Of a stretch of DNA of 64,000 bases, positions 44,301 through 63,947 are shown piece after piece (within the stretch, counting starts at the first letter, position 1; each line of letters opens with the position of its first letter). Where the stretch lies: the NCBI RefSeq assembly GCF_001528665.1, contig NZ_BBYJ01000007.1, forward strand, positions 207,953 through 271,952. Direction: 5' to 3'. A program made the position numbers and the translations under genes. The notes beneath the pieces were generated by a model. The model saw only the letters and a list, made by a program, of their open reading frames with translations, searched no databases and was not told the origin of the DNA. Source of the stretch: Microtetraspora malaysiensis (GTDB taxonomy: Bacteria; Actinomycetota; Actinomycetes; Streptosporangiales; Streptosporangiaceae).

Positions 44301-46225
44301 CCGGCCAGCCCGTCGCCGTACAGGCGGCGCGGATCGGGGGGCGCACGCCGGACGGCGGCGACGGGGACGGAAACGGGAGCGGCGGCCCGCGGGTGATCGA
44401 CCTGCCGTGGCGGGCGCTGGGACATCCGCTGCCCGCCGCGGCGCAGGCCGCGCCGACGTCCGGCACGGACCTGGCTCTATTCGTGGACGCGATCGACGCG
44501 GCGGCCAGGGGCGTCGCGCGGTGTCCGAGCCCGTGGCTGCCGCCGCTCCCGGAGACGGTGACGCTGACGCCCGAGCGCGGCGTGGACGGGCGGCCGCCGG
44601 AGCCGGGCGGCGCGCCGTCGCTGCCCTTCGGGCTGACCGACCTGCCGTGGCTCCAGGCCAGGGGCCCGCTCGGCCTCGACCTGGAGCGCGGCGGCCATCT
44701 GCTGATCGCCGGGTCGGCCCGGAGCGGGCGTTCCACGGCCCTGCGCACGATCGCGGGGTCCGTCGCCGCGTGGGCCTCCCCCGAGGACGTCCACCTGCAC
44801 GTGATCGACTGCGGGTCCGGCGCGCTGCGCCCGCTGGTCGGCCTGCCCCACTGCGGGGCGGTCGTCACCCGGGACCAGCTCGACCGGGTCGAGCGGCTGC
44901 TGTCCCGGCTGCGCGAGGAGGTGGGCCGCCGCCAGCAGCTCCTCGCCGAGGCCGGGTACGCGTCGCTGGCCGAGGCCAGGGCCGCGTGCGCGCCCGGCGC
45001 GGCCCGGCTCTCCGGGCCGTCCGGGGAGCCGCCGGTCGGGCGGCTGCCGTGGCTGGTGCTGCTGCTCGACCGGTGGGAGGGCTACGTCGCCGCGTTCGAG
45101 AACTACGACTACGGGCGGCTCCTCGACGCGCTGCTGCAACTGCTGCGCGAGGGCCCCGCGGTGGGGCTGCGCGCGATCGTCACCTCCGACCGGTCGGGGC
45201 TGCTCGGCCAGATCTCGACCGTGTTCGAGGACCGCCTCGTGCTGCGCCTGGCCGACCCGGCCGACTACGGGCTGGCGGGGCTGCCGGTGAAGGACCTGCC
45301 GTCCTCCCTGCCGCCGGGGCGCGCCCTGTCCCTCGGCGAGAACGGACTGGTGGAGAGTCAGATCGCGCTGCTCGCCGACGACCCGTCCGGCCCCGCCCAG
45401 GTGGCCGCCCTGCAGGCCCTCGCCCGTACGGCCGCCGCCCGGTTCGGCGGGGACCCGGAGCGGAAGGGAGCGTGGGCGTGGCGGTCCGCGCCGCCGCTGC
45501 GCGTGGACGCGCTGCCGGTCCGCGTCACCGCCGAGACGGCGATGGAGCTGGCTCCGGCGTTCGAGCCGCCCTCGCCTCTGTGGGCGCTGCTCGGCGTGGG
45601 CGGGGACGCGCTCGAACCGCTGGGGCTGGACCTTCTCGCCCAGGGGCCGGCGGCGGTGGTCGGCGGCCCGGCCCGCTCCGGCCGGTCGTCGTGCCTGGTG
45701 ACGGCGGCGCGGTCACTGGCCGGGCGGGGGACGCCGGTCCTCGTGGTCACGCCCCGCCGGAGCCCGCTGCGGGCGCTGGCGGGGGCTCCCGGCGTGCTCG
45801 CCGTACTGGACGGCGAGGCCAGGAAGGTGGCGGGAGCCGAGCCGGACGGGCCGTCGGACGCGCAGGACCCGCGCACGATCCTGGACGGCAGGCGGGAGTA
45901 CGTGGTGATCGTCGACGACGCCGAGCTGATCTCTCCGGACTCGCCGCTCGGGCTGGCCCTGGAGGAGATCCTGCGCTCCGCCCGGGACGGTGAGCACGGT
46001 CTGCTGATCGCGGGGGCGACGGGCGACCTGGCGACGGCCTACCGGGGGTTCGCGGCGGAGGCGCGCAAGTCGAGGACCGGCCTGCTGCTGTCGGTGCAGA
46101 GCCCGGCCGACGGCGACCTCTTCGGCGTACGGCTGCCGCGCGGCGCGGTCGGCGGCCCGCCGGGACGGGGACTGCTGATCACCTCGGGGACCGCGACCCC
46201 GATCCAGGCCGCGCTCCCCGGATGA
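41390..46225 (+). CDS. Type VII secretion FtsK/SpoIIIE ATPase with FHA-like N-terminus (EccC/EssC-like)
   Basis: This 1611-aa motor fills the EccC/EssC role. Residues 1-95 look ubiquitin-like; 105-190 look like an FHA domain (LHTLGSDPGCAVAVPDPALP) but lack the Arg and Ser-x-x-His of phosphothreonine binders. Two membrane helices follow (about 305-345). The first FtsK domain is intact: Walker A Lys772 in GTTGAGKSELLQTL, Walker B LVLVIDEFAAM. The second (Arg1114, GSARSGRST) and third (Arg1432, GPARSGRSS) have Arg where the P-loop Lys should be, so they probably bind substrate rather than hydrolyse ATP. The FHA plus single-chain layout resembles firmicute EssC more than mycobacterial EccC. It converges on a WXG100 gene. 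Confidence 0.92.
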   Translation: MRITLTVVAEHGHRDVLVEGDESTTVGALAGALAGPARPSNVVRLPPARAPYDLDRGRRRRAEGPKLWVDGRPLDPGARVFGLIRDGDLVALDGVAAAATMAEEPDGVIELRVAGGPGAGSVHRLGPGLHTLGSDPGCAVAVPDPALPPHAATIRVAPDGVSVEPAHPAARLELDGRPVREATPWAARRTPPSPAEASGGSVRRAARRHARKARRAGKAGRGIDAAGRAGRDEAAGRGAARDVRRVLLSCGVSVFSVGPVEPPDAHLDALPDGGLAYNRPPRLRAPDRRPRLEVPTEPKRAEGARLHLLAALLPAVFGVGMAVAFHNVYFLLIALMSPLIMFGQWASDRRHGRKKYRQAVKAYRGRLAAFEAEVAEAREEDEAARGEAAPDPAEILLTATGPRRRLWERRLHDPDSLRLRVGLADLPADIAYAPERGASADTELPEPPLARHVPVALAMRRLGVAGVTGPREAAIGSARWLVGQAAALHSPRDLAVVVLSAHADAADQWGWVRWLPHCAAEGGATGAASLVSGSVALVGADPEAAARRVADLAALIGERLDPAETAPSGAASGPFGGPLSGGPAGWGDLGRAGSSRPEEAAEPAFAAYDERPCDVLVVLDGAQVLRGLPGMPQVLRQGPRAGVYTVAIDDDERLLPEECATVVSCDPDGSVRLRGGGLDAIGPIRADQVSASWAERLGRALAPLRDVSRDDQASALPESVRLLDLVAAEGIARRWGRSTRAVIGVGPDGPFEIDISRDGPHALIAGTTGAGKSELLQTLICSLAAANRPDEMTFVLIDYKGGAAFKECVRLPHTVGMVTDLDGHLTQRALASLAAEIRRRERLLLAAGAKDIEDYQAARLSHRAGKAVRELPPLPRLVLVIDEFAAMVSELPDFMDGLVDIARRGRSLGIHLVLATQRPGGVVTADIQANTSLRIALRVTDARESDDVIDTPDAARISKATPGRCYVRSGSGQPVAVQAARIGGRTPDGGDGDGNGSGGPRVIDLPWRALGHPLPAAAQAAPTSGTDLALFVDAIDAAARGVARCPSPWLPPLPETVTLTPERGVDGRPPEPGGAPSLPFGLTDLPWLQARGPLGLDLERGGHLLIAGSARSGRSTALRTIAGSVAAWASPEDVHLHVIDCGSGALRPLVGLPHCGAVVTRDQLDRVERLLSRLREEVGRRQQLLAEAGYASLAEARAACAPGAARLSGPSGEPPVGRLPWLVLLLDRWEGYVAAFENYDYGRLLDALLQLLREGPAVGLRAIVTSDRSGLLGQISTVFEDRLVLRLADPADYGLAGLPVKDLPSSLPPGRALSLGENGLVESQIALLADDPSGPAQVAALQALARTAAARFGGDPERKGAWAWRSAPPLRVDALPVRVTAETAMELAPAFEPPSPLWALLGVGGDALEPLGLDLLAQGPAAVVGGPARSGRSSCLVTAARSLAGRGTPVLVVTPRRSPLRALAGAPGVLAVLDGEARKVAGAEPDGPSDAQDPRTILDGRREYVVIVDDAELISPDSPLGLALEEILRSARDGEHGLLIAGATGDLATAYRGFAAEARKSRTGLLLSVQSPADGDLFGVRLPRGAVGGPPGRGLLITSGTATPIQAALPG

Positions 46226-51886: not shown

Positions 51887-53299
51887 ATGCAGACCCGAAA
51901 GGATCTCTACCAGGCGCATCGGCTGATGACGCAGCGCCTGGGCACGGCCCTGCTGCAGGCGGAGCCGGACCTGCCGGAGGCCCCGATGCGCCGGCACACC
52001 GTCGCGTCGTTCGGCGGCGTCATGCTCGCGGTCCTCGTCATGGCCGTCTTCGGGATCTGGGGACTGCTCAAGCCCGGCGGCGCGACGAGCCTGACCGATC
52101 CCGGCCAGTTGCTCGTCGAGGAGGAGAGCGGCGCCGTCTACATCTACAGCGAGGCCGGCAAGACGCTGCTCCCCGTCGCCAACTACGCGTCGGCGCGCCT
52201 GCTGCTCGGAACCCCCGACGTGACCGTGCGCAACGTGTCGGCCAGGTCGCTCGCGGAGTTCGACCGCGGCCCGCTCGTGGGCATCCCCGGCGCGCCGGCC
52301 TCGCTCCCCGCGCCGGAGAAGCTGGTCCGCGGCCCCTGGTCCGCCTGCGTGACGGAGGTGGCGGACGCCGCCGGGTCGCGCACGTCGTACGTGACCTTGG
52401 TGGGCGGCAGGGACGTCGGCGGCCGCCAGATCGGCGAGGACGCCATGGCGGTCGAGGACGGGCGGCAGGAGTGGCTGATCTGGGGCGACCAGCGGATGCG
52501 CGTCGTCGGCGACGCCGCACGCTCGCTGGTCGGGGCGAATCCCAAGAAGGTGCCCGCCGCCTGGCTGAACTCCCTCCCGGAAGGCCCCGGCTTCCGCAGT
52601 CCGGACGTCCCCGGCCGAGGCCGCAGGCTGCGCGGTCCGGACGGCACGAGCGCCGTCGTGGGCCAGGTGTTCACCGTCCCGGCGATGGCCGGAACCCCCG
52701 CCCGCTGGTACGTTTTGATGGGCGACGGGCTCGCCCCGATCTCCATCACCCAGGCGAGCCTCCTGCTGGAGGACCCCGAGAGCAAGAAGAAGGCGTACGG
52801 CAGGCGGCCGGTCATGCCCATCCCGATCGACGCGGCCACCGCGAACAGCGCGCCCGTGTCGAAGACCGACATGACGGTCCCCGGGATGCCCACCGAGATG
52901 CCGAAGATCATCGTCCCGGACCTGTCCGCGCCACTGTGCGCCGTCTACGCCGACAGCGAGTCCGGCTCGGCCCGGGCCCGGCTGACCATCGGGAGCCGGA
53001 TCGAGATCCCGGTGCCTCCGGCGAGCGGCGACCAGGAGCATTTCGACCAGGTACTGCTCCCGCCGGGGGCGGCGGCGGTGGCCGGGGTGCTGCCCGGCGA
53101 CGGCGCGGCGGTCCACACGTACTTCCTGGTCACCGACCAGGGGCGCCGGTTCGCGGTCGCGTCCGCCGACCTGCTCGCCGATCTCGGCTACCAGGTCTCG
53201 GACGCCGCGCCGGTGCCGACGCAGATCCTCCACCTGATCCCCGAAGGCCCGGCGCTCGACCCCGCCGCCGCCAGGAAGCCCCTGCAGTACGGCCAGTGA
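51887..53299 (+). CDS. eccB: Type VII secretion core protein EccB
   Basis: This 470-aa protein matches EccB: N-terminal TRKDLYQAHRLMTQRL, one membrane helix (about 41-61), then the long periplasm-side domain with the family landmarks WLIWGDQRMRV and YVLMGDGLAPISITQASLLL. EccB is part of the membrane core complex with EccC, EccD and EccE. ATG has GGGAG upstream. It follows two strong hairpins, so it probably has its own promoter in 51741-51886. It converges on the 238-aa WXG/TM gene. Confidence 0.95.
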   Translation: MQTRKDLYQAHRLMTQRLGTALLQAEPDLPEAPMRRHTVASFGGVMLAVLVMAVFGIWGLLKPGGATSLTDPGQLLVEEESGAVYIYSEAGKTLLPVANYASARLLLGTPDVTVRNVSARSLAEFDRGPLVGIPGAPASLPAPEKLVRGPWSACVTEVADAAGSRTSYVTLVGGRDVGGRQIGEDAMAVEDGRQEWLIWGDQRMRVVGDAARSLVGANPKKVPAAWLNSLPEGPGFRSPDVPGRGRRLRGPDGTSAVVGQVFTVPAMAGTPARWYVLMGDGLAPISITQASLLLEDPESKKKAYGRRPVMPIPIDAATANSAPVSKTDMTVPGMPTEMPKIIVPDLSAPLCAVYADSESGSARARLTIGSRIEIPVPPASGDQEHFDQVLLPPGAAAVAGVLPGDGAAVHTYFLVTDQGRRFAVASADLLADLGYQVSDAAPVPTQILHLIPEGPALDPAAARKPLQYGQ

Positions 53300-53341: not shown

Positions 53342-54058
53342 CTAGGCCCCCGCCATCCCCGGGATCTGCGGGACCTTCAGGTCCTGCTGGAGCCCGGCCT
53401 CGTCGTTGTACTTCAGGTACGCGCCGGAGTAGTCGGCCGGCTGCTGCGGGAGCGCCGTCGTGTTGGGGAACAGGGCGCCCGTACTCGAGCTCTGCCAGTT
53501 CACCAGGCCGATGACTCCGGCGATCATGAAAACGGCCCTGGCCTGCTTCTGCAGGAGCTTCCTCATCGCCCCCGCGAGGGTGGTCAGCGCGGAACCCGTC
53601 GCGGCCCGGACCGCGACCTTGGCAGGGGGGTAGGCGATGCATATGTACTGCAGCACGGCAAAGGCGGCCAGTAGGCCGGCCACACTGAGGCAGACGATGA
53701 CGGCGACGTGGTACATCCTCGCGGTCTGGTCGAGGGAGTCACCCGCCCCTTCGTGGTTGCGCTTGAGCTGATCGACTCCTTCCACGAAGGTGTCCGCGAC
53801 GGCGCTGAAGGTCGAGAACGCCGGCCCCTTCCACTTGTCCTTGAACGAGTCCCTCATCTGGACGATGTGGTCCTTGAGGGAGTCGAGGTCGACGCGCCAG
53901 TCGGCCGCGGCCGCGGCCATGGCCTCCGGATCGGAGACGAACGACGACATCATGAGAACGATGGTCCTCGCGACCGGGTACTCCCACAGAAGCATCGCGG
54001 AACCGCCGGCCGCCGCCACCGCGTTCATGATCAACATCTTGTCGCTCTCGTAAGCCAC
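53342..54058 (-). CDS. WXG100-like protein with membrane helices
   Basis: This encodes a 238-aa protein. Residues 40-110 form a WXG100-like hairpin (RDSFKDKWKGPAFSTFSAVA, Trp-x-Gly). A membrane helix pair follows (about 115-145 and a weaker one near 170-190; AVIVCLSVAGLLAAFAVLQY). The C-terminal 45 residues are polar (GALFPNTTALPQQPADYSG). It ends the minus-strand operon that begins with the WXG100 pair at 59.8 kb. It may be a membrane-bound substrate or a toxin-like effector; no toxin domain is recognised. Confidence 0.75.
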   Translation of the reverse strand: MAYESDKMLIMNAVAAAGGSAMLLWEYPVARTIVLMMSSFVSDPEAMAAAAADWRVDLDSLKDHIVQMRDSFKDKWKGPAFSTFSAVADTFVEGVDQLKRNHEGAGDSLDQTARMYHVAVIVCLSVAGLLAAFAVLQYICIAYPPAKVAVRAATGSALTTLAGAMRKLLQKQARAVFMIAGVIGLVNWQSSSTGALFPNTTALPQQPADYSGAYLKYNDEAGLQQDLKVPQIPGMAGA

Positions 54059-54099: not shown

Positions 54100-55167
54100 T
54101 CAGTCGATCTGACCGATCACCGCAGGGGCCACGTCGTCGTCCGCGCCCCAGTCACCCTCGTCACCGGTGAGGAAGGCCGACTTCTCCCTCTCGCGCTCCT
54201 GCGCCCCACCGCCGCCGCCCCCACCCATCGGGGGCATGTACGGCATCCCCGTGCCGCCCGCTCCCGCCGCGCGCGCGGCGTCGGCGGCCGTCCGGCCCAG
54301 CCCCGCCCCCGGCGCCGTTCCGGAGTAGCCGGGTCCGCCGGTGGTCGTACCGCCCGGCCCGGATCCCGGCCACCCGGAGCCCCCGGGGTACTGCCCCCCG
54401 GGGTTCTGCCCCCCGGGAATCGTGACCCTGTTCGGGTCGAGTCCCGCGAGGTTGGTGCTCGGATCGCCGATCGAGGGGGTGGTGATCCCGGTCGTGTCGT
54501 GGGACGGGAGATCGGTTCCCGGCCCCTTGCCCAGGTCGTCCGGGTTCGGAACATTGGGCCCCTTGCCCAGGTCGTCCGGGTTCGGAGCCTTGGGCCCCTT
54601 GCCCAGGTCATCCGGATTCGGAGCCTTGGGCCCCTTGCCCAGGTCATCCGGATTCGGAACGTCGGGCCCCTTGCCCAGGTCATCCGGATTCGGAACCTTG
54701 GGCCCCTTGCCCAGGTCATCCGGATTCGGAACGTCGGGCATCTTCGGATCCGGCGTGCCGGGGATCTTCGGCGTGCCGGGGACCTTCGGATCCGGCGTGT
54801 CCGAGCCCTTTTTCTTGTCGTCGGGGTTGGTGCGGTCGTAGTTATCGTCCATGTCCTTGAGCGCCTTCTCCCAGGACGCCAGCGCCTTCTGGGCTTCCTC
54901 GAGGGCGCTCGCCGCGGCCTTGCGCGCGGAGTCGTGCGCGCTGGCCAGGCCGATGCCGACGGCGCCGAACCCGGGGAACCCGATCTCGATCGAACCGGTC
55001 GCCTGCGAGATCTTCCCGAGGGCGGGGGCGCGTTCCGCGAGTTTGCTGCCGAGACTCGCCACCTCCCCCTTCTCCGGGAACTGGAGCTCTTGGTGGCCCA
55101 TCAGCGACGAGCCGCCCATCAGGTCGGCGGCGCTCGGGATGCCCGAACCGGACGAGGAGTCAGTCAT
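54100..55167 (-). CDS. Type VII-associated protein with PNPDDLGKG repeats and shared C-terminal tail
   Basis: This encodes a 355-aa protein. Residues about 30-110 are helical (Ala/Lys-rich; AAASALEEAQKALASWEKAL) and may form a hairpin without a clear WxG. A linker with six 12-residue repeats (PNPDDLGKGP plus two variable residues) follows, then a Gly/Pro-rich region (GTGMPYMPPMGGGG) and a C-terminal tail SAFLTGDEGDWGADDD ending APAVIGQID. The tail is shared with two neighbours (55191-56468 and 57027-58589). It is probably secreted or a surface-linked partner. Function unknown. Confidence 0.8.
   Translation of the reverse strand: MTDSSSGSGIPSAADLMGGSSLMGHQELQFPEKGEVASLGSKLAERAPALGKISQATGSIEIGFPGFGAVGIGLASAHDSARKAAASALEEAQKALASWEKALKDMDDNYDRTNPDDKKKGSDTPDPKVPGTPKIPGTPDPKMPDVPNPDDLGKGPKVPNPDDLGKGPDVPNPDDLGKGPKAPNPDDLGKGPKAPNPDDLGKGPNVPNPDDLGKGPGTDLPSHDTTGITTPSIGDPSTNLAGLDPNRVTIPGGQNPGGQYPGGSGWPGSGPGGTTTGGPGYSGTAPGAGLGRTAADAARAAGAGGTGMPYMPPMGGGGGGGAQEREREKSAFLTGDEGDWGADDDVAPAVIGQID
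54521..54740 (-). repeat. Six tandem 36-bp repeats in a coding sequence
   Basis: Each unit encodes PNPDDLGKGP plus two variable residues (KV, DV, KA, KA, NV, GT-like). The units divide into two sequence types, one with gtcgtccgggttc and one with gtcatccggattc, suggesting expansion by local duplication. Copy number is likely variable between strains. Confidence 0.9.
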
Positions 55168-55190
55168 GTGTACGCGCCTTCCGCTGTCCG

Positions 55191-56468
55191 CTACCCGAGC
55201 ACCGGGGGAATGCTGCTGCCGCCCTCGCCCCAGACCTCGTCGTCTTCCATGAGCCAGGTGGAGTTCTCCCGGTCCGCCTGCCCCTCACGGCCCTGTCCGC
55301 CGCCGTGCGCGCCGGCCCCCATCATGCCGTTCGCGCCCGCCGCTCCCGCGCCGCGAAGACCCGTACCGCGAGACGCCGCCCCGCCTCCGGACGAGCCGCC
55401 GGCCACGCCGCCGAGCCCCGGCACGATCCCGGCGGAGCCCCCTCCGAAGGCGCCGGAGCCGGACGAGCCGCCGGAGGAGGGACCGCTGAGCGTGGTCGCC
55501 GACGGGGTGAGCGTCCCCGGGCCGCTGTACCCGGCCAGATCGGCGGTGCCGGAGCCCGATCCCGTGCTCGATCCCGGGCCGGTTCCCCCTCCGGAGGGGC
55601 CGCCGGGTGTCACCCCGGTCCCGTCTCCTCCCCCGAGACCGCCGGTGGACGGGCCGAGGACGGACGGCGTGACCCCATCGGCGCCGGGACCGGTGATCCC
55701 GAGGTCGCCCGGGATCGAGCCGGGCCCTCCGAGACCGTCGACGTCCGGAACCGATCCATTGACGTCCGGAACCGAACCGCTGACGTTCGGAGCCCCGTCG
55801 AAGCCGGGCAGGGGGCCGCCCGGGCCCGAGGGCAGCCTCAGGTTGACCTTCTCCGGGTCGTACTGGACCTTCGAGAGGTCCGGCAGCTCGATGTCGTGGG
55901 GGTCGGGCAGCGCCTGCTGGACTTCGGACGGCAGCGTCGCGTAATTCTCGACGATCCGCTCGTTGACCCGCTTCAGATGGTCGGCGGCGCGCTTTTCCGT
56001 ACGAGACCGGCCCCACCACACGTCGGCCCAGTCGATGTCGTGATCGGAACGCGAGTCCTCGCCGACCTTCTCGACCACGTTCTGCTGCGCGTACACGAGA
56101 GTGTCGGCGTAGTCCTGGAGCGACCGTCCGGTCTTCCCCAGCTTCCCGGCGAGCTCGCGCACGCTCGCGTGCAGACTCCGGAGCTGCTTCTGCACCTCGA
56201 CCGCCTCCGGGCCCTTGTAGTGCTCGGCCAGCCCGGTGGCGGCGCTTTTCACGTCCGTGGCGAAGCTGTCGAGCAGCCCCTGGGCGGCGGAGTAGTACTG
56301 CCCGGCCCGGCGCACCGAGTTCGGGTCGCTGTTGTCCACCCAATCCTTGATCGTGTCGATGTTGGAGTGGAACAGGGTCGCCCAGAAGCCGGTGGCGAGA
56401 TCGACGTCCTTGGTGGGAGCGATCGTGAACTTCTTCAGTTCGATGTTTACGATCTTCGGGTCCGTCAT
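55191..56468 (-). CDS. Large type VII-associated PPE-like protein with shared tail
   Basis: This 425-aa protein has an N-terminal helical domain of about 200 residues with a WXG100/PPE-like core (HYKGPEAVEVQKQLRSLHAS) and a Trp-rich stretch (FWATLFHSN, WADVWWGRSR). Residues 215-385 are a Gly/Pro/Ser-rich linker including repeated GSVPDVNG/GSVPDVDG. The tail STWLMEDDEVWGEGGSS ends IPPVLG and matches two neighbours. It lies 11 bp downstream of a small helical gene (56480-57001), so the two probably form a heterodimer pair like PE/PPE. It is likely a secreted substrate. Confidence 0.8.
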   Translation of the reverse strand: MTDPKIVNIELKKFTIAPTKDVDLATGFWATLFHSNIDTIKDWVDNSDPNSVRRAGQYYSAAQGLLDSFATDVKSAATGLAEHYKGPEAVEVQKQLRSLHASVRELAGKLGKTGRSLQDYADTLVYAQQNVVEKVGEDSRSDHDIDWADVWWGRSRTEKRAADHLKRVNERIVENYATLPSEVQQALPDPHDIELPDLSKVQYDPEKVNLRLPSGPGGPLPGFDGAPNVSGSVPDVNGSVPDVDGLGGPGSIPGDLGITGPGADGVTPSVLGPSTGGLGGGDGTGVTPGGPSGGGTGPGSSTGSGSGTADLAGYSGPGTLTPSATTLSGPSSGGSSGSGAFGGGSAGIVPGLGGVAGGSSGGGAASRGTGLRGAGAAGANGMMGAGAHGGGQGREGQADRENSTWLMEDDEVWGEGGSSIPPVLG

Positions 56469-56479
56469 CGTGCGCTCCG

Positions 56480-57001
56480 TCAGACTTCGCGCGAAGCGTC
56501 GGCCCCGTTGGCCTGCTCCGCTCGGTCATAGCTGTCCACCATCGTCAGCAACGCCTGGGCGGCGGCGTCGGCCCGCGTGACCAGGTCCGCGTACGCGCCG
56601 GTCCCCGCCTGCAGGTGCTCGCCTCCGGGGGAACGGCTGTCCCCGTCGTGTTTGATGGCGCCCTCGCCGACAAGCTGGTTGAACGCGACATTCGCCGCTG
56701 TGTAGAAGGACTGCGCCGCCCGCCACGAGCCGTAGCGCTCCGCGGCGAGCCCGCACTCCCGTCGCAGGTCCGGCAGCGATCCCGCGCCGGCCGGGGGCCC
56801 CGGCAGCGGCGAGTTGTCCCCGGGGGCGTGCGCCACGAACCGGGCCGGCGCCTGGGTCTCCGTGATCAGGGCGTCCAGGGCCGTGCGCAGGTTGCCGGCG
56901 ATCCGCTTGATCTCCGGACGGTTGAGTTCCGGGCTACCCGACCCGCTCGCGTCGTTCTTGTCCGTCAGACCGGGCCAGTCCGGGTCATACTCGAGCGCCA
57001 T
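56480..57001 (-). CDS. Small helical partner of the 425-aa protein
   Basis: This encodes a 173-aa protein. ATG 57001 is favoured over 57010 by AGGA upstream. It begins LEYDPDWPGL, as does the other small partner (LPLDPKWPGL, 58603-59022). Helices follow (IAGNLRTALDALITETQAPA, ERYGSWRAAQSFYTAANVAF). The C-terminus has YDRAE, matching the YxxxD/E export motif. The stop is 11 bp before the large partner. Function inferred from pairing. Confidence 0.75.
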   Translation of the reverse strand: MALEYDPDWPGLTDKNDASGSGSPELNRPEIKRIAGNLRTALDALITETQAPARFVAHAPGDNSPLPGPPAGAGSLPDLRRECGLAAERYGSWRAAQSFYTAANVAFNQLVGEGAIKHDGDSRSPGGEHLQAGTGAYADLVTRADAAAQALLTMVDSYDRAEQANGADASREV

Positions 57002-57026
57002 GCGCACCATCCTGCTCTGGTAGGGA

Positions 57027-58589
57027 TCAGCCGATCACCGGCGGAATGACGCGATGGCTGGAGTCCCAGGCGTCGCGATCCTCGTTCAGCCAGGTGGTCC
57101 TCTCCTGACTTTCCCGGTCACCGGCGGCGCCGGCTCCGGCTCCGCTCATCGGCATGAACGGCATCGACGACCCCGCCGGGCCCCTGGGCGCCACGAGCCC
57201 CGGCCCACCGGCGACCGGTGTACCCGATCCCGGCCCGCCCAGGATCGACGGGGTGCCCGGAGCCACCGTTCCCGGTTGGGTCACCACGCCGCCGGTCACC
57301 CGCGGATCGACCGAGATGAGCCGGCCGTTCGTGTCGCCGATGACCGGATTCGTGATCGGCATGTCCCGGACACCGGCCGTCTCGGTGCTCTGACTGTCGC
57401 TTCCCGCCAGGTCGTTCTGCCCGATGACGGAGGGGGCGGTGCCGTCGCCCGTGTTCGTCGCGGGGCCCGCACCGGTGTCCGTCCCGGGAGCCGATCCGGG
57501 GTCGGAGCCGGTCCCGGGGGCGCCGGGATCACCCGCGCCACCTGACGGGTCGGTCGTGCCACCGCCCGCTTCCGGGGATCCCGGGTTTCCCGAGCCGCCG
57601 GAACCGCCGGAACCGCCGGTGTGACCGCCTCCCGTGCCGGAGCCGTCCGTCCCGTGGGATCCCCCGCCGCCCGAGCCGGAGCCCGCCCGCGGCGACGAGC
57701 CCCCCGAACCGCCCGAGCCACCGCTGTGGTCCGCACCGCCGGTGCCGCCGGAACGGACTCTCGACGTGCCGCCCCCGTCCGAGCCCGACGACCCGTCTCC
57801 GTAGGTGACCTGGCGCCGTGGTGGGGAACCCCCGTCCGGAGGCGACACCTTCGGCAGCTCGTACGTCACATCAGCGGGTATGTGAGCCGCGTAGACATCG
57901 ACGATCTTCGTGTTCAGCTCGTTGAGCACTCCCCTGGCGCGGTTGTCCGCGAAGGCCTTGGCCGCCAGGTAGGTGCCCTCGGTCTTGATGCCGTTGTAAT
58001 TGGAACGCAGGAGGCTGGGGGGAAGGCCCCCCTGATCGCCGATGACTCCGTTCGAGTACAGCCCCGGCTGGGTCGGGCCCTGGAGTCCCGTGGCGCCCGT
58101 CAGCGACGGGCTCGTGTTCTGCTGGAACGAAGTGGCCCCCGAAGGCGGCGGCCCGACCAGAGAAGAGTTCTGCTGGGGGTAGCACCCGGGCAGTTCCTTC
58201 TGCAGATTTCCCTGGATCTGCTCGATCTCGGTCTTCGCCTTGGGCAGATGGACCTCGCCGTACAGCCTGAGCGCCTGGCTCATCCCCCGCATCTTCGTGG
58301 CGAGTTCCTCGCCCACCGCGGTGAGGAGCCGCAGCGCCTTCTGAACGTCGGCGGCGGCCGGCCCCTTCCACGCCTCGGCGAGCCGCTGCGCGCGCGCCTG
58401 GATCGCGTCCGTCATCAGTTCGATGTTCGAGGCGGCGTGTGTGTAGGCGAATCCGGCGTCGCTCACCAGCGTCGGCGAGCTTTTCCGCAACCACGCCGCG
58501 ATCTGGTCCGTGTCGGTGGGAGCGGTCACCGGGGCGGCCGTCGGGGGCTGCCCCGTTTTGATGCTGAGAGTCTTTCGATCGGTGTCCAC
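57027..58589 (-). CDS. Large type VII-associated PPE-like protein with long Gly-rich linker and shared tail
   Basis: This 520-aa protein has a helical N-terminal 240 residues with a WXG100-like turn (LAEAWKGPAAADVQKALRLL). A very long Gly/Ser/Pro/Thr linker (about 250-480) follows, with scattered PSVIG, NPVIG and PSILG motifs, then SMPFMPMSGAGAGA and the tail TTWLNEDRDAWDSSHRV ending IPPVIG. The tail aligns without gaps to the proteins of 55191-56468 and 54100-55167. It lies 13 bp downstream of a small helical gene. GTG 58589 has AGGGGGG upstream. It is probably a secreted substrate. Confidence 0.8.
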   Translation of the reverse strand: MDTDRKTLSIKTGQPPTAAPVTAPTDTDQIAAWLRKSSPTLVSDAGFAYTHAASNIELMTDAIQARAQRLAEAWKGPAAADVQKALRLLTAVGEELATKMRGMSQALRLYGEVHLPKAKTEIEQIQGNLQKELPGCYPQQNSSLVGPPPSGATSFQQNTSPSLTGATGLQGPTQPGLYSNGVIGDQGGLPPSLLRSNYNGIKTEGTYLAAKAFADNRARGVLNELNTKIVDVYAAHIPADVTYELPKVSPPDGGSPPRRQVTYGDGSSGSDGGGTSRVRSGGTGGADHSGGSGGSGGSSPRAGSGSGGGGSHGTDGSGTGGGHTGGSGGSGGSGNPGSPEAGGGTTDPSGGAGDPGAPGTGSDPGSAPGTDTGAGPATNTGDGTAPSVIGQNDLAGSDSQSTETAGVRDMPITNPVIGDTNGRLISVDPRVTGGVVTQPGTVAPGTPSILGGPGSGTPVAGGPGLVAPRGPAGSSMPFMPMSGAGAGAAGDRESQERTTWLNEDRDAWDSSHRVIPPVIG

Positions 58590-58602: not shown

Positions 58603-59022
58603 TCAGGCGCTCCCGTTGCCCTCGTTCGCGCGGTTCGTCTTGGCGTACTCGTCGGCCTGGGCTTCCATCACGAGCATCACGGTCTTGTAGACCTCGGCCC
58701 ACCGCTGGTAGGCCTCCAGCAATGCCCTGCCGCCCTTGGCCGCCGTGTCGGCGAGCACCTTCGCGTCCGCCCACTCACCGAGCTGTCCGGCCCCGATCTT
58801 CTCCAGGCCGCTCTGCTCGACACTCTTCACCGAGCCGGTCGTATAGCCCTCGTCGAAGGCCGCTGCGTCGACGCCGGCCAGGTACTCCTTCAGCTCTCCG
58901 GCGATCGTCCTGATCGTGGCGACGTTGTATTGCACCGGAACGTCACCGTCCAGGCCCGGCCATTTCGGGTCGAGCGGGAGCGTGTCGCCGCCGTCGCCGC
59001 CCATGGCGTCCTTCTGCGTCAT
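58603..59022 (-). CDS. Small helical partner of the 520-aa protein
   Basis: This encodes a 139-aa protein from ATG 59022 (GTG 59037 is an alternative with a weaker ribosome site). It starts with LPLDPKWPGL and has helices TIRTIAGELKEYLAGVDAAA and ALLEAYQRWAEVYKTVMLVM, ending YAKTNRANEGNG. It resembles the small partner at 56480-57001 and occupies the same place relative to its large partner. This is a PE/PPE-like arrangement by analogy. Confidence 0.75.
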   Translation of the reverse strand: MTQKDAMGGDGGDTLPLDPKWPGLDGDVPVQYNVATIRTIAGELKEYLAGVDAAAFDEGYTTGSVKSVEQSGLEKIGAGQLGEWADAKVLADTAAKGGRALLEAYQRWAEVYKTVMLVMEAQADEYAKTNRANEGNGSA

Positions 59023-59142
59023 GTCACCCCAACTCACGACCTGCGAGGCCCGTCACCGAGCCATCCGCGGAATCGGGCACGGAAGGGCCGTCCCGGCCGT
59101 CGAGAACGGCGACGGCCCGGGAAGACCCGTACGAGCGCTGGG

Positions 59143-59457
59143 TCAGCCGTTCACCCACATGCTCTTGTTCCTGATCTCCGCCGCCTTGTAGTTCTCGTTG
59201 GCGATCTGGATGGCCCGCTGCATCTCGTCCAGCTGGCTCCTCATCTTGGTGGCGGCGGCGTCCCACTTCCGCTGGTGCTCGCGGAAGAACGCCTCCGCGC
59301 CGTCGTCGCCCTCCCAGTGACCGGAGAGGTCCTGCTGGAGCTTGGCGAGCAGGTCGGACGTGGCCCGCTCGAAGTCACCCAGGATCTTGACGAAGTCCTC
59401 CTGGGCCAGATCCATGTGGCCGAAGTTGACCTTGGTAAAGTCGAGTTCAGCGGACAC
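59143..59457 (-). CDS. WXG100-family protein (Esx pair, second gene)
   Basis: This 104-aa protein has the hairpin turn GHWEGDDGAEAF (Trp-x-Gly) and a C-terminal YKAAE, a match to the YxxxD/E export signal, in NENYKAAEIRNKSMW. GTG start with GGAGAG upstream. It lies 33 bp downstream of another WXG100 gene, the classic paired layout of heterodimeric substrates. It is likely secreted through the EccC-like motor. Confidence 0.92.
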   Translation of the reverse strand: MSAELDFTKVNFGHMDLAQEDFVKILGDFERATSDLLAKLQQDLSGHWEGDDGAEAFFREHQRKWDAAATKMRSQLDEMQRAIQIANENYKAAEIRNKSMWVNG

Positions 59458-59490
59458 TGCGCTCTCCGTTCCTGCCTGACTGGCTTTCGG

Positions 59491-59817
59491 TCACTTGATG
59501 TCGACGTTGATCAGCGACTCGACACGGCCCACGCCGGCCTGGACGTCCTGGTCCGCGGCGTCGTAGACGATGGCGTTGACGCCCATCTTGTCCGCGATCG
59601 ACTCGAGGTCCTCTCGGACCGTCCTCATGCTGTCGTTCCAGGTGATCATCGCCCGCTTGAAGACGGCGGCCGCCGGGCCCATCCATCCCGTGGCCAGCAG
59701 GCCGTTCGCCGTCGTCTCGACACCCGAGCGAAGGCCCTCGATGTACTGGGCCGTGTCGACGACATGGCCGGACGCTTTCGTGATCTGTGCGGGGCTCGCC
59801 CCAAAGAACTGCGACAT
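59491..59817 (-). CDS. WXG100-family protein (Esx pair, first gene)
   Basis: This 108-aa protein starts MSQFFGASPAQI with ACGGAGGTGA upstream; a longer frame from 59877 is less likely. The turn motif is GWMGPAAAVFKRA (Trp-x-Gly), and the C-terminus carries YDAAD (YxxxD) in AIVYDAADQDVQ. It is first in a minus-strand operon of up to eight genes ending at 53342. Confidence 0.92.
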   Translation of the reverse strand: MSQFFGASPAQITKASGHVVDTAQYIEGLRSGVETTANGLLATGWMGPAAAVFKRAMITWNDSMRTVREDLESIADKMGVNAIVYDAADQDVQAGVGRVESLINVDIK

Positions 59818-59980
59818 TCCGTCACCTCCGTGACATGTGGCCGGTCTGGCCCCAGACGTTCCCGGCGTCAAGGACACGTCGTACGGATATCACCAGACCG
59901 CATCGTATGCCTCAAGATCTACCTAGCTAACATGCATGTATATTACGGATAAGTAAACTTTGATCAACCTATCCGTGTCA
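59818..59980 (-). promoter_or_regulatory. Promoter region of the WXG100/substrate operon
   Basis: On the minus strand, TTGATC (59962-59967) and TAATAT (59940-59945) are separated by 16 bp, a good sigma-70-like promoter. A perfect palindrome ACATGCATGT (59930-59939) follows right after the -10, in a candidate operator or leader position. The untranslated leader would be about 115 nt. Confidence 0.6.
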
Positions 59981-60427
59981 CTACGCGCCTTCGAGCCGCT
60001 TCTGGATATGGCCGAGCTCGGCCATCACGTCGTCGAAGGTCCGGTTGTAGAGCCCCTCGGCCTCCCTGACCCTGTCCATCGCCGCGTCGGGGTCCTTGAG
60101 GAGCTTCATGGGGTCGTTCTCCTTGCCGAAGACCTCCTCGGACGCCTCCTCCACCAGCCGCTGCATGTCCTCGGCCGCCGCCCGGATCGTCTCCTTGATC
60201 TTCTCGGCGAGCTCGCCCGAGCTGAGCCGCATCGCCTTGGGGTGCAGCTCCAGCTCGCGCAGACCGGCCCCGGCGTATTCCACGGTGACCAGGCGGTCCT
60301 CGTCCTGCGCCCGACCGACCAGGTCCGACAGGACGCGCTCGAACTGCTGCATCTGCTCGATCTGCTGATCGCCGCGTCGCATGAGCTGCTCGATGTCGAT
60401 GTTCGCGAAGTCGCCGAAGTCCGTCAT
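59981..60427 (-). CDS. YbaB/EbfC-family protein
   Basis: This 148-aa protein from ATG 60427 (longer frames upstream are unlikely) has an acidic N-terminal helix (IDIEQLMRRGDQQIEQMQQF), a YbaB-like core (VTVEYAGAGLRELELHPKAM) and a C-terminal helix. YbaB/EbfC proteins dimerise and bind DNA; ESX-linked members (like mycobacterial EspL) stabilise substrates or regulate genes. It sits directly upstream of the esx operon on the same strand. Confidence 0.85.
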   Translation of the reverse strand: MTDFGDFANIDIEQLMRRGDQQIEQMQQFERVLSDLVGRAQDEDRLVTVEYAGAGLRELELHPKAMRLSSGELAEKIKETIRAAAEDMQRLVEEASEEVFGKENDPMKLLKDPDAAMDRVREAEGLYNRTFDDVMAELGHIQKRLEGA

Positions 60428-60609
60428 CCGTCGCCCCCATCTCCGGTGCCGGCAGCCGTCCACGTGCCAGAAATCACATATGGACACATTTAGAGGGCAA
60501 CGTACCTCATCGACCCTCGCTTTCACCGGCCTTTCCGGTCATGTGATATCCGCTGAAATAGGCGAAACCACCACTGACCAGGCCGAACCCGCTCCTCCCG
60601 CTGACGGGG
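60428..60609. promoter_or_regulatory. Spacer between the two YbaB-like genes
   Basis: These 182 bp have an AT-rich segment near 60470-60500 (CATATGGACACATTTAGAGG) that may hold the promoter of the 148-aa gene. No gene is seen. Confidence 0.4.
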
Positions 60610-61125
60610 TCAGCCGGAGCCGTTCCGGAACCGCTCCAGGCGGGCCATCCGGCCCTCCATCGAGTCGAGGAAGGAGTCCTGGATCGCCTCCAGCCTCCGC
60701 CGCGCACGGTCGATGTCCAGCGCCCGGTCGGCCGGGCGGCCGGGCTCCCTCCCGTCGCCGGAAGACTCCGCGCGCCCGCCGGACGCGTCCGGAAAGGCTC
60801 CGCCCAGAGGGTCCTCCAGCGCCGAGCCGAGCACCTCGGCGGTCCTGCGCTGGGCGTCCTCCTGCGCCGCCCGTACGGCGCTGACCACCGCCTCGGCCAG
60901 ACCCTCGCTGCCCTGCCGCATCACCCGGGGATCGAACCGCACGTCCCTGATCCGGCCCTCGCCGTCCACGATGGCACGGATCATGCCGCCGGCGGCCTCG
61001 CCCTCCCCGGTCACCTCGCCCAGCCGTCCCAGGGCCTCGGTCAGATCGCGGAGGGTGCGTTCCGCCTCCCGGGAGATCCGGTCGATCTCCTCCGTACGCA
61101 CCGTCGCGGGATCGAAGTCGAACAT
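60610..61125 (-). CDS. YbaB/EbfC-family protein, longer paralogue
   Basis: This 171-aa protein has a YbaB-type core (MIRAIVDGEGRIRDVRFDPR, EGLAEAVVSAVRAAQEDAQR) between an N-terminal coiled-coil helix (EEIDRISREAERTLRDLTEA) and a charged C-terminal helix (RARRRLEAIQDSFLDSMEGR). It is oriented like the neighbouring 148-aa paralogue and diverges from the 104-aa gene. The ribosome site is GAGGGGGCAGGG. Confidence 0.82.
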   Translation of the reverse strand: MFDFDPATVRTEEIDRISREAERTLRDLTEALGRLGEVTGEGEAAGGMIRAIVDGEGRIRDVRFDPRVMRQGSEGLAEAVVSAVRAAQEDAQRRTAEVLGSALEDPLGGAFPDASGGRAESSGDGREPGRPADRALDIDRARRRLEAIQDSFLDSMEGRMARLERFRNGSG

Positions 61126-62510: not shown

Positions 62511-63947
62511 TCAGCCGGACAGGCCGCGGATCCAGGCGTAGACCTCCAGCACGCCCAGCGCGAGCGGGAACAGGCCGGCGGTCAGCATGACGTCGACGAT
62601 GTCCCCGGCCCGTCCCCAGAACGGGGACGGGCGCCCGGTCGGCAGCCACAGGCCGAGACCGGCCGGGATCGCCGCCGCCCACATGAGCCCGATCACGAGC
62701 GCGACGGACCAGACGCCGCCCACCCGCGTGCTCAGCGTGAGCGTGAGCAGGACGAGCCCGGCCAGCGCGGGCACCGTCAGCCAGAGCCGCTGCGCGACGC
62801 CGTGGAAGACCCGCGTGCGGAGAACCATGGACAGCGACAGCGCCAGCGACATGACCGGCGCGATCCACCCCTCGTCGAGCACGAGCAGCGGCTGGGCGGC
62901 GAGCACGGCCAGCCCGATCCCCGCGACGATCCCGGTGGCGTAGCGCTGCGCCTGGCCGGTCCGCTCAAGGATGGACGCGCTGTCCACCCGCTCGTTGTCC
63001 GCGCGCAGCTCCTCGGCCGTGGTGGGCATCGAGGGCAGCGGCATCCGGGCCAGCCGGAACGCCAGCGACGGGACGATCGGGCTGCACGCCAGCAGGAGCG
63101 ACGCGGCCACCGCGGCGACCCCCGGCGCGGGCGCGTCGAACACCATCACGATCGCGGCGCACACCGTCCCGGTCACCGAGGCGATCGCGGTGCCGAGGAA
63201 CCCGGGCACGCCGTCGGCCACCGCGGCCCCGCCGACCGCGGCCACGAACGCGACGCAGGCGAACCCGGCGAGCAGGTGCGGCGCGCCCAGACCCGCGAGC
63301 CCGGCCGGTCCCGCCGGGGCGAGCAGCCCGGCCAGGAACCCGTACGGCAGGGCCGCGTAGCCGAGCGCCGCGCCCGCGCCCGAGTGGCCGAGCGCCCGGG
63401 ACAGGGAGGCGGCGGCGAGAAGCAGGAGGAGGGCGAGCACGCCCGCGACCACGGCCACCACGCCCAGTGCCGTGCCGGACAGCACGAGCGCGGGAACCCC
63501 GGCGACGAGAAGGGCGCAGGAGGCGCCCGTCCCGAGCAGCCGGGTGTGCCGGCCGCTCCAGGCGTTCCTGCCCTCCTTGACGCCGGTGGCGACCACATCG
63601 GCGACGTCGTCGAACATCGCCGGGGGCAGCACGAACTCGCGCGGGCGGAGGTAGAGCACCTCACCGTCGAGGACGCCGAGCACGCCGAGGCTCTGCCCGA
63701 GGTCGAAGGGGGTGCCGCCGAGCCGCTGCAGGATCCATCCGGGCGCGGCGGCGTGCTCTCCGTCCATCTCGCCGAGCGCGCGCAGCAGGCCGGGCATGAC
63801 GTGCGGCAGCGGGATGTCCGACGGCAGCGCGAGGTCGGCTCTCTTGTGCGGGCCGACGATCGTGACGTGGCAAAGCGCCGGCAGCCGGGCGCCCGCCGCG
63901 GCGAGAGCCCCCTGCGACATCGGCTCATGGGCGGCCAAGGACGTCAC
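62511..63947 (-). CDS. eccD: Type VII secretion integral membrane protein EccD
   Basis: This 478-aa protein has a ubiquitin-like N-terminal domain (CHVTIVGPHKRADLALPSDI, then PLPHVMPGLL) followed by about 11 membrane helices from residue 135 on. This is the EccD architecture and length. EccD dimers form the translocation membrane vestibule with EccB, EccC and EccE. GTG start has GGGAG upstream. EccE is not in the window and may lie just beyond base 64000. Confidence 0.93.
   Translation of the reverse strand: MTSLAAHEPMSQGALAAAGARLPALCHVTIVGPHKRADLALPSDIPLPHVMPGLLRALGEMDGEHAAAPGWILQRLGGTPFDLGQSLGVLGVLDGEVLYLRPREFVLPPAMFDDVADVVATGVKEGRNAWSGRHTRLLGTGASCALLVAGVPALVLSGTALGVVAVVAGVLALLLLLAAASLSRALGHSGAGAALGYAALPYGFLAGLLAPAGPAGLAGLGAPHLLAGFACVAFVAAVGGAAVADGVPGFLGTAIASVTGTVCAAIVMVFDAPAPGVAAVAASLLLACSPIVPSLAFRLARMPLPSMPTTAEELRADNERVDSASILERTGQAQRYATGIVAGIGLAVLAAQPLLVLDEGWIAPVMSLALSLSMVLRTRVFHGVAQRLWLTVPALAGLVLLTLTLSTRVGGVWSVALVIGLMWAAAIPAGLGLWLPTGRPSPFWGRAGDIVDVMLTAGLFPLALGVLEVYAWIRGLSG

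What the first reader, a model, noticed from the sequence alone, without database searches (positions are those of the whole stretch)
54100..58589. Gap-free shared C-terminal tail in three type VII-linked proteins
The proteins of 57027-58589, 55191-56468 and 54100-55167 differ in their bodies but align over about 27 C-terminal positions: an E/R-rich lead, [ST]-[TA]-[WF]-L, an acidic cluster, a fixed Trp seven positions later, and P-[PA]-V-[IL]-G. Just before it all three have a Met/Gly-rich segment (GMPYMPPMGGG, GANGMMGAG, SMPFMPMSGAG). Internal copies of the VIG/ILG motif occur in the linkers. Seen directly: the pattern. Inferred: a sorting, docking or partner-binding tail distinct from YxxxD/E.
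Basis: partly seen in the sequence, partly recalled or inferred. Interest (0 to 1): 0.7.

Follow-up and report, generated by a model that had tools for sequence, protein, structure and literature searches.

The report
EspB-like export tail in actinomycetes
Three neighbouring proteins of a soil bacterium's type VII secretion locus end in the same short tail, which recurs across actinomycetes and in the mycobacterial protein EspB, so a so far unnoticed part of a protein-export system may now be testable.

Summary
Three proteins end in the same 25 residues, aligned without gaps and beyond chance; these are the genome's only copies found, all in one type VII secretion (T7SS) locus. The tail is widespread: 70 of 394 genomes of the class match, and 69 of these have EccD. 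In named loci, 45 of 64 tail genes are followed at once by a mycosin gene. The profile, built without mycobacterial sequence, also finds EspB in four mycobacterial genomes, and a second-step profile finds the tail in 18 of 18 strong EspB genes of 13 genomes. Tail genes often sit beside a mycosin or an EspL-type YbaB gene, as espB does. The largest protein has a predicted PPE/EspB-like N-domain; linker and tail model at low confidence. Best reading: an EspB-type docking tail of T7SS substrates, separate from YxxxD/E. Its partner and its job are inferred; many loci lack a nearby mycosin, so mycosin cannot be the only partner. No Pfam or NCBIfam model, and no paper I saw, describes the shared tail.

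The parts
57030..57104 (-). 25-residue tail of protein 1 (with the Met/Gly-rich segment: 57030-57167)
57027..58589 (-). Tail protein 1 (520 aa): WXG100_2/PPE-like helical N-domain, low-confidence (probably disordered) linker, tail
   Evidence: Pfam PF25547 28.1 bits, cut-off 27; model m49e82fdd1124 with helices 27-132 and 204-236 and pLDDT under 50 from 246 to 520; best Foldseek hits EspB and PPE41, none at E<=0.001
58603..59037 (-). Small predicted PE/EspC-like partner of tail protein 1
   Evidence: position directly upstream; weak BLAST similarity to 56480-57010; no Pfam hit; pairing is inference
55194..55331 (-). Tail of protein 2 with its Met/Gly-rich segment
55191..56468 (-). Tail protein 2 (425 aa), WXG100_2-like N-domain with YKG in place of WxG
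   Evidence: PF25547 25.9 bits, just under the cut-off of 27
56480..57010 (-). Small predicted partner of tail protein 2, with YDRAE (YxxxE) near its end
   Evidence: orthologues in L074, L107 and L059 keep YxxxE
54112..54249 (-). Tail of protein 3 with its Met/Gly-rich segment; QID follows
54100..55167 (-). Tail protein 3 (355 aa): predicted helical-hairpin N-part, NPDDLGKGP repeats, tail
   Evidence: no Pfam hit; low-confidence model with helices 33-59 and 70-113; two orthologues carry YHEAE and YKAAE at the PE/EspC position
53342..54058 (-). WXG100 protein with hydrophobic stretches, predicted partner of tail protein 3
   Evidence: PF06013 29.1 bits; pairing is inference
59143..59877 (-). 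Core Esx-type pair (two WXG100 proteins) without tails
   Evidence: PF06013 in both, PF10824 in 59491-59877
59981..61125 (-). Two YbaB/EbfC-like genes
   Evidence: PF02575 25.1 bits (just under the cut-off of 25.5) and 53.3 bits
47623..48810 (+). Mycosin (MycP) of the same locus
   Evidence: TIGR03921 279.1 bits, cut-off 278.75
41390..46225 (+). EccC/EssC-type ATPase
   Evidence: TIGR03928, TIGR03924 and TIGR03925, all below their cut-offs
51887..53299 (+). EccB
   Evidence: TIGR03919 299.4 bits, cut-off 154
62511..63947 (-). EccD
   Evidence: TIGR03920 226.5 bits, cut-off 94.95

Best explanation
The tail is a conserved short linear motif at the end of the long linker of EspB/PPE-like type VII substrates, the same module as the C-terminal segment of mycobacterial EspB. 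Shown here: the sequence, its conservation, the class-wide T7SS association, the EspB similarity, and a gene context with mycosin and/or an EspL-like YbaB gene. Inferred: the helical N-domain pairs with a small PE/EspC-like partner and is exported as a folded dimer on the usual YxxxD/E-type signal. The tail is a second, independent contact that engages the secretion machine during export, most likely in or below the EccB-mycosin chamber. [quoted passage not shown]
For: A profile of 20 non-mycobacterial tails (A4) hits EspB in four mycobacterial genomes at E 5e-4 to 3e-3; all four proteins carry EspB_PE and EspB_PPE. Of all hits at E<=10 in 25 genomes of that genus, the only five spanning nearly the whole profile (1-46 or 3-46) lie in EspB frames. 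A second-step profile from the four EspB tails finds the tail in the same frame as 18 of 18 strong EspB_PPE matches (67.8 bits or more) in 13 genomes, E 5e-4 or better. Profile-profile comparison: probability 93.9, score 36.8, best-ranked of 200 column shuffles 19.5. 69 of 70 tail-positive genomes have EccD, 93 of 324 tail-negative. In 45 of 64 named tail genes a mycosin gene follows on the same strand after 14-113 bp. In all 20 class-sample loci with a mycosin, apart from the four EspB loci and the window, the mycosin gene is adjacent or overlapping on the same strand, and nine of these 20 have no EccB/C/D in the stretch. In 20 of 79 loci a YbaB gene follows directly; espL follows espB with overlapping codons on one RNA with mycP1 and eccE1 (PMC6319747, passages), and the gene after espB is YbaB by Pfam in two of two tested. 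Protein 1: predicted PPE/EspB-like N-domain, low-confidence linker and tail. MycP1 removes C-terminal parts of EspB (PMC10140165 and PMC9811218, passages).
Against: Nothing here shows secretion, binding or cutting. The direct step from A4 to EspB is weak: it reaches 5 of the 13 genomes with a strong EspB_PPE match at E<=10 (4 at E<=0.01), and these are one genus, not independent; the rest rests on the second-step profile. Without the Met/Gly segment the EspB comparison is only just above shuffles (20.9; best of 300, 19.9). All ten fetched f19 loci, ten of eleven fetched g60 loci of the window's family and nine f20 loci have EccB/C/D and the tail but no mycosin in the fetched stretch, about 8 kb each side and less at contig ends. 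The MycP1 cleavage motif [ALV]x[ALR]P is not notably enriched upstream of tails (43 found, 33.2 expected, 88 proteins). Fold Z-scores of about 12 lie within what unrelated helical bundles give. Twelve of 79 tail loci, eight of them in family f48, show no EccB/C/D, mycosin or YbaB gene.
Confidence: 0.5

Rival explanations
1. The tail is a cytosolic handle for an EspL-like YbaB chaperone that delivers the substrate to the ATPase, and mycosin adjacency only reflects operon history.
For: YbaB/EbfC genes lie in the fetched stretch of 49 of 79 tail loci and directly downstream in 20 (eleven of the genes found were seeds of that search); two lie in the window's gene cluster; EspL is proposed as a chaperone in ESX-1 (PMC6319747, passages).
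Against: Sixteen f20 tail loci have a mycosin but no YbaB gene in the stretch. In the paper EspL stabilised EspE, EspF and EspH; the passages I saw do not report it binding EspB.
Confidence: 0.2
2. The tail docks on the EccC ATPase, as C-terminal signals of some WXG100 proteins do, and switches the motor on; it is an export signal proper.
For: EccC/EssC is a component common to described T7SS, and C-terminal signals binding its ATPase pockets are described (PMC11217815, abstract start and passages). Tails persist without a nearby mycosin.
Against: The tail lies at the far end of a long linker, away from the helical domain, and the C-terminal region of EspB is cut off by a protease of the outer side. 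No sequence likeness to Esx C-termini was tested.
Confidence: 0.2
3. The tail recruits or paces other cargo, like the acidic C-terminus of PPE68 in Mycobacterium marinum, and is not needed for the protein's own export.
For: Removing 10 C-terminal residues of PPE68 blocked EspE but not EsxA secretion (PMC9765416, section 7 and passages). Each of the three predicted pairs in the window carries exactly one tail and the core Esx pair none (inference).
Against: PPE68-like C-termini of six mycobacterial genomes do not match the tail profile better than shuffles (17.5; best of 200 shuffles 19.7).
Confidence: 0.15
4. The tail acts outside the cell, for example as an adhesion or self-assembly patch of a surface protein, and T7SS linkage only reflects that these are T7SS substrates.
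For: Low-complexity linkers and a conserved end would suit surface assembly; nothing here excludes it.
Against: Conservation on unlike N-parts and operon-like coupling with mycosin or YbaB suggest a partner in the cell or envelope.
Confidence: 0.1

Closest known systems
EspB of mycobacterial ESX-1 (Pfam PF18625 + PF21856)
   Same: PPE-like helical domain, long linker, Met/Gly-rich segment, C-terminal tail; gene near a mycosin and directly before a YbaB/EspL-type gene
   Different: EspB fuses PE and PPE halves in one chain, here two genes per predicted pair; the three window proteins do not hit the EspB Pfam models; processing unknown
PPE proteins, especially PPE68 with its acidic C-terminus
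   Same: Similar predicted N-domain fold; acidic, Trp-containing C-terminus
   Different: No profile match of the C-termini; the three tail proteins have no Pfam PPE hit at E<=1
YxxxD/E general T7SS signal
   Same: Short motif linked to T7SS
   Different: Other sequence and place; in two orthologues of tail protein 3 both occur on one chain

Membership tests
EspB family | EspB_PE and EspB_PPE Pfam domains | tested here: not met
   No hit at E<=1 in the three window proteins
EspB family | Fold of the N-domain | tested here: inconclusive
   Foldseek ranks EspB and PPE first but none at E<=0.001; VIA Z 9.3-12.2 for EspB and PPE chains, with unrelated helical bundles close by
EspB family | Conserved C-terminal segment | tested here: met
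   hhalign 93.9, score 36.8, shuffle best 19.5; two-step profile search covers 18 of 18 strong EspB genes; direct step 5 of 13 genomes; core alone borderline
EspB family | Gene next to mycosin and EspL/YbaB | tested here: met
   As a class trend; in the window both are in the locus, but mycosin is 5.3 kb away on the other strand
EspB family | Processing by mycosin | not testable with these tools
   Only a weak proxy: the cleavage motif is not notably enriched
EspB family | Heptameric ring | not testable with these tools
   No multimer prediction on hand
WXG100/WXG100_2 superfamily (N-domain) | Pfam score over cut-off | tested here: inconclusive
   Protein 1 passes (28.1, cut-off 27); protein 2 falls short (25.9); protein 3 has no hit
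PPE family PF00823 | Pfam hit | tested here: not met
   None of the three window proteins at E<=1; some tail proteins of other families do hit
T7SS substrate pair with YxxxD/E signal | YxxxD/E after the helical hairpin of one partner | tested here: inconclusive
   Partner 56480-57010 has YDRAE; 58603-59037 and tail protein 3 have YAKTN and YDRTN; two orthologues of protein 3 have YxxxE

The most novel reading that the evidence does not exclude
The tail is a second, general address of actinomycete type VII secretion, older than the mycobacteria. One copy is carried by each substrate pair, it is read by the envelope part of the machine, and in EspB it survives in the C-terminal region that mycosin cuts off. 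Export, capture and release would then be steered by a C-terminal code separate from YxxxD/E.
Probability: 0.3. Interest if true: 0.8.

Novelty: new variant of a known kind. Interest (0 to 1): 0.6.

Why it matters
The C-terminal part of EspB is described as unstructured and flexible (PMC10140165, passages), and a 2011 analysis found EspB orthologues only in M. bovis and M. marinum among the mycobacteria it compared (PMC3227618, passages). If the end of EspB is an ancient module found across many harmless soil actinomycetes, its role can be studied by simple tail removals in such strains, and substrates of little-studied T7SS loci can be spotted by sequence. The tail gives a searchable profile that no Pfam model covered in the tail proteins scanned and no NCBIfam model in proteins 1 and 2.

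Tried and rejected
Chance or low complexity: rejected by shuffles and orthologues. Copies elsewhere in the genome: none beyond the three at E<=0.01. Spread outside the class: 5 of 296 phylum genomes matched at E<=0.001, all of the same class. PPE68-like C-termini as relatives: no better than shuffles. MycP1 cleavage motif as a conserved mark upstream: not convincing. Mycosin as universal partner: weakened by loci without one. The genome-wide mycosin count was too loose, since other subtilases match (it also rings in Bacillus subtilis); I did not use it as a presence test. FHA binding of a phosphorylated Thr in the tail: considered and dropped because the Thr position varies; not tested. Structure of tail protein 3: too low in confidence to search. 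Solved structures by sequence: no hit for protein 1. In one search three of 70 stretches come from records labelled Bacteroidetes, Flavobacteriales and Ferruginibacter and have no in-frame tail ORF; I take them as chance and left them out. Seven more stretches lack an in-frame ORF, all with the match within 350 bases of the locus edge. Two of 80 fetched regions (L213, L215) held no tail ORF and were dropped. Two of the 70 tail-positive class genomes (G183, G486) have hits only over the Met/Gly part of the profile and may be false. Nine tail loci were not fetched (G320, G360, G384, G008, G472:C49, G015, G134, G005:C8, G112). A paper on EspB export that I looked for by DOI is not held, so its results are not used.
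Full report
What is there. The window lies in an 8.8 Mb genome; the closest named loci are Microtetraspora fusca and M. glauca. Its right third is a T7SS locus: EccC, mycosin, EccB and EccD, several WXG100 proteins, two YbaB-like proteins and the three tail proteins. Profile search finds exactly three tails in the genome at E<=0.01, all here.

The tail. The three C-termini align gap-free over 25 positions and score beyond shuffles. Other genera keep it: E/R-rich lead, mostly [ST]-T-W-L-x-E-D-[ED]-x-x-W-G, an acidic stretch, A-P-x-V-I-G. In the named loci, which were found by a DNA pattern for this motif without a stop codon, 59 of 64 in-frame tail ORFs end exactly with the motif. Other groups add about 1-75 residues.

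Spread. In the window's family 71 of 150 genomes match, in 33 of 68 genera; in the class 70 of 394 genomes, in 22 of 138 genera, over eight families, f6 and f28 by weak hits only. Some genomes gave sequences to the profiles and match by construction, and two of the 70 match only over the Met/Gly part. The DNA pattern over GTDB genomes gave 70 stretches, mostly Actinomadura, with others from Planomonospora, Microtetraspora, Thermomonospora, Catenulispora, Actinorhabdospora, Actinopolymorpha and more. In the phylum sample 5 of 296 matched, none outside the class.

Link to T7SS. EccD is in 162 of 394 class genomes; 69 of the 70 tail genomes have it, and the exception (G360) is in about 1310 contigs. 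Fisher P is 2e-30, not corrected for kinship. Within the window's family in that sample, 26 of 31 EccD genomes have the tail and 0 of the 10 listed without EccD do (my count). Of 106 listed tail hits, 57 lie within 20 kb of an EccD hit that I entered from a capped list, so this is a lower bound. In 62 of 67 named loci an Ecc, mycosin or WXG100 gene is in the held stretch; most of these are one genus, so they are not independent.

Mycosin and YbaB. In named loci 45 of 64 tail genes have mycosin directly downstream, 14-113 bp away. Of 79 class-sample loci (78 of 80 fetched, plus the window), 25 have a mycosin, 49 a YbaB gene, 66 at least one, 48 EccB/C/D and 67 any of these. Nine f20 loci have tail and adjacent mycosin but no EccB/C/D in the stretch. 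In f20 mycosin and YbaB exclude each other (16 loci with mycosin, 11 with YbaB, none with both), whereas ESX-1 has both. Seven YbaB genes next to tails, two of the window and two after espB were checked by Pfam. They were also seeds of the profile behind the counts. Background density in random regions was not measured.

EspB. Profile A4 contains no mycobacterial sequence, yet in four mycobacterial genomes its hit at E 5e-4 to 3e-3 falls in a protein with EspB_PE and EspB_PPE. A control over 25 EccD-positive genomes of that genus: 13 have a strong EspB_PPE match; A4 reaches EspB in 5 of these 13 (four at E<=0.01, one at 0.21) and in no other frame does it give a hit over nearly the whole profile. 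So the direct signal is real but weak. A profile from the four EspB tails then finds the tail, in the same frame, in 18 of 18 strong EspB_PPE genes of the 13 genomes at E 5e-4 or better; one full-length hit, E 0.03, lies elsewhere. The profile comparison is well above shuffles with the Met/Gly segment and marginal without it. In the four fetched EspB loci mycosin lies 0.7-1.4 kb upstream, and in two a YbaB gene overlaps the end of espB. Published work says MycP1 cuts EspB at Pro332 and Ala392 of 460 residues, and that the processed but not the full-length form binds phosphatidic acid or phosphatidylserine (PMC10140165, passages; PMC9811218, passages). In the EspB gene best matching the Pfam model the tail starts 129 codons after the EspB_PPE match; if that spacing holds in the studied protein, the tail lies beyond both sites. 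I did not read that sequence, so this is inference.

Architecture. Tail protein 1 has a well-modelled helical N-domain; linker and tail are at pLDDT under 50, as expected of disorder. The best structural neighbours are EspB and PPE proteins, but unrelated helical bundles score almost as well. Proteins 1 and 2 follow small genes that look like PE/EspC partners; protein 3 itself looks PE/EspC-like and precedes a WXG100 protein. So each of three predicted pairs carries one tail, on either partner, and the core Esx pair none. The pairing is inference.

Mechanism. In the published ESX-5 structure mycosin caps a chamber formed by EccB, with its proteolytic sites facing the cavity (PMC8131196, passages). 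I propose that the tail is held in or below this chamber while the folded part passes, and that cutting or dissociation frees the cargo. Recognition and all later steps are inference; loci without a nearby mycosin show that cutting by mycosin cannot be the whole story.

Novelty. No Pfam model covered the tail in the tail proteins scanned, and no NCBIfam model in proteins 1 and 2 (protein 3 was not given to it). Ten full-text searches listed no paper whose title or abstract start describes such a shared tail. Of seven papers I saw passages, of one of these also a whole section; the others I saw as listings. Subscription papers are largely missing from the library.

Noticed in passing
window 55191-56468: Tail protein 2 has YKG where tail protein 1 has the WKG of the WxG motif.
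   Followed up: no
window 53342-54058: A WXG100 domain followed by two hydrophobic stretches that look by eye like membrane helices; unusual for a small T7SS partner.
   Followed up: no
window 49028-51604: A Ser/Thr kinase-like protein with a long Pro/Thr-rich region lies between mycosin and EccB; EccC also has a stretch matching the SctD/YscD model, which I read as FHA-like.
   Followed up: no
window 54100-55167: Protein 3 carries six NPDDLGKGP repeats; the two aligned orthologues have other repeats there.
   Followed up: no
L176-L179, L181, L189, L234, L243: In these f20 loci the tail gene sits between two mycosin genes.
   Followed up: partly
L183-L185, L193, L245-L250: In family f48 tail genes stand alone: none of these ten loci has EccB/C/D or mycosin in the stretch and only two have a YbaB gene.
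   Followed up: partly
L200-L205, L207, L209-L212, L251-L253: A group of tail proteins continues about 70 residues beyond the tail, with a basic stretch such as KRKPGIGNRRGR near the end in the related ones printed.
   Followed up: no
L262-L267: PPE68-like proteins of six mycobacterial genomes end in an acidic stretch closing with DDW, resembling the tail by eye only; the profile test was negative.
   Followed up: yes
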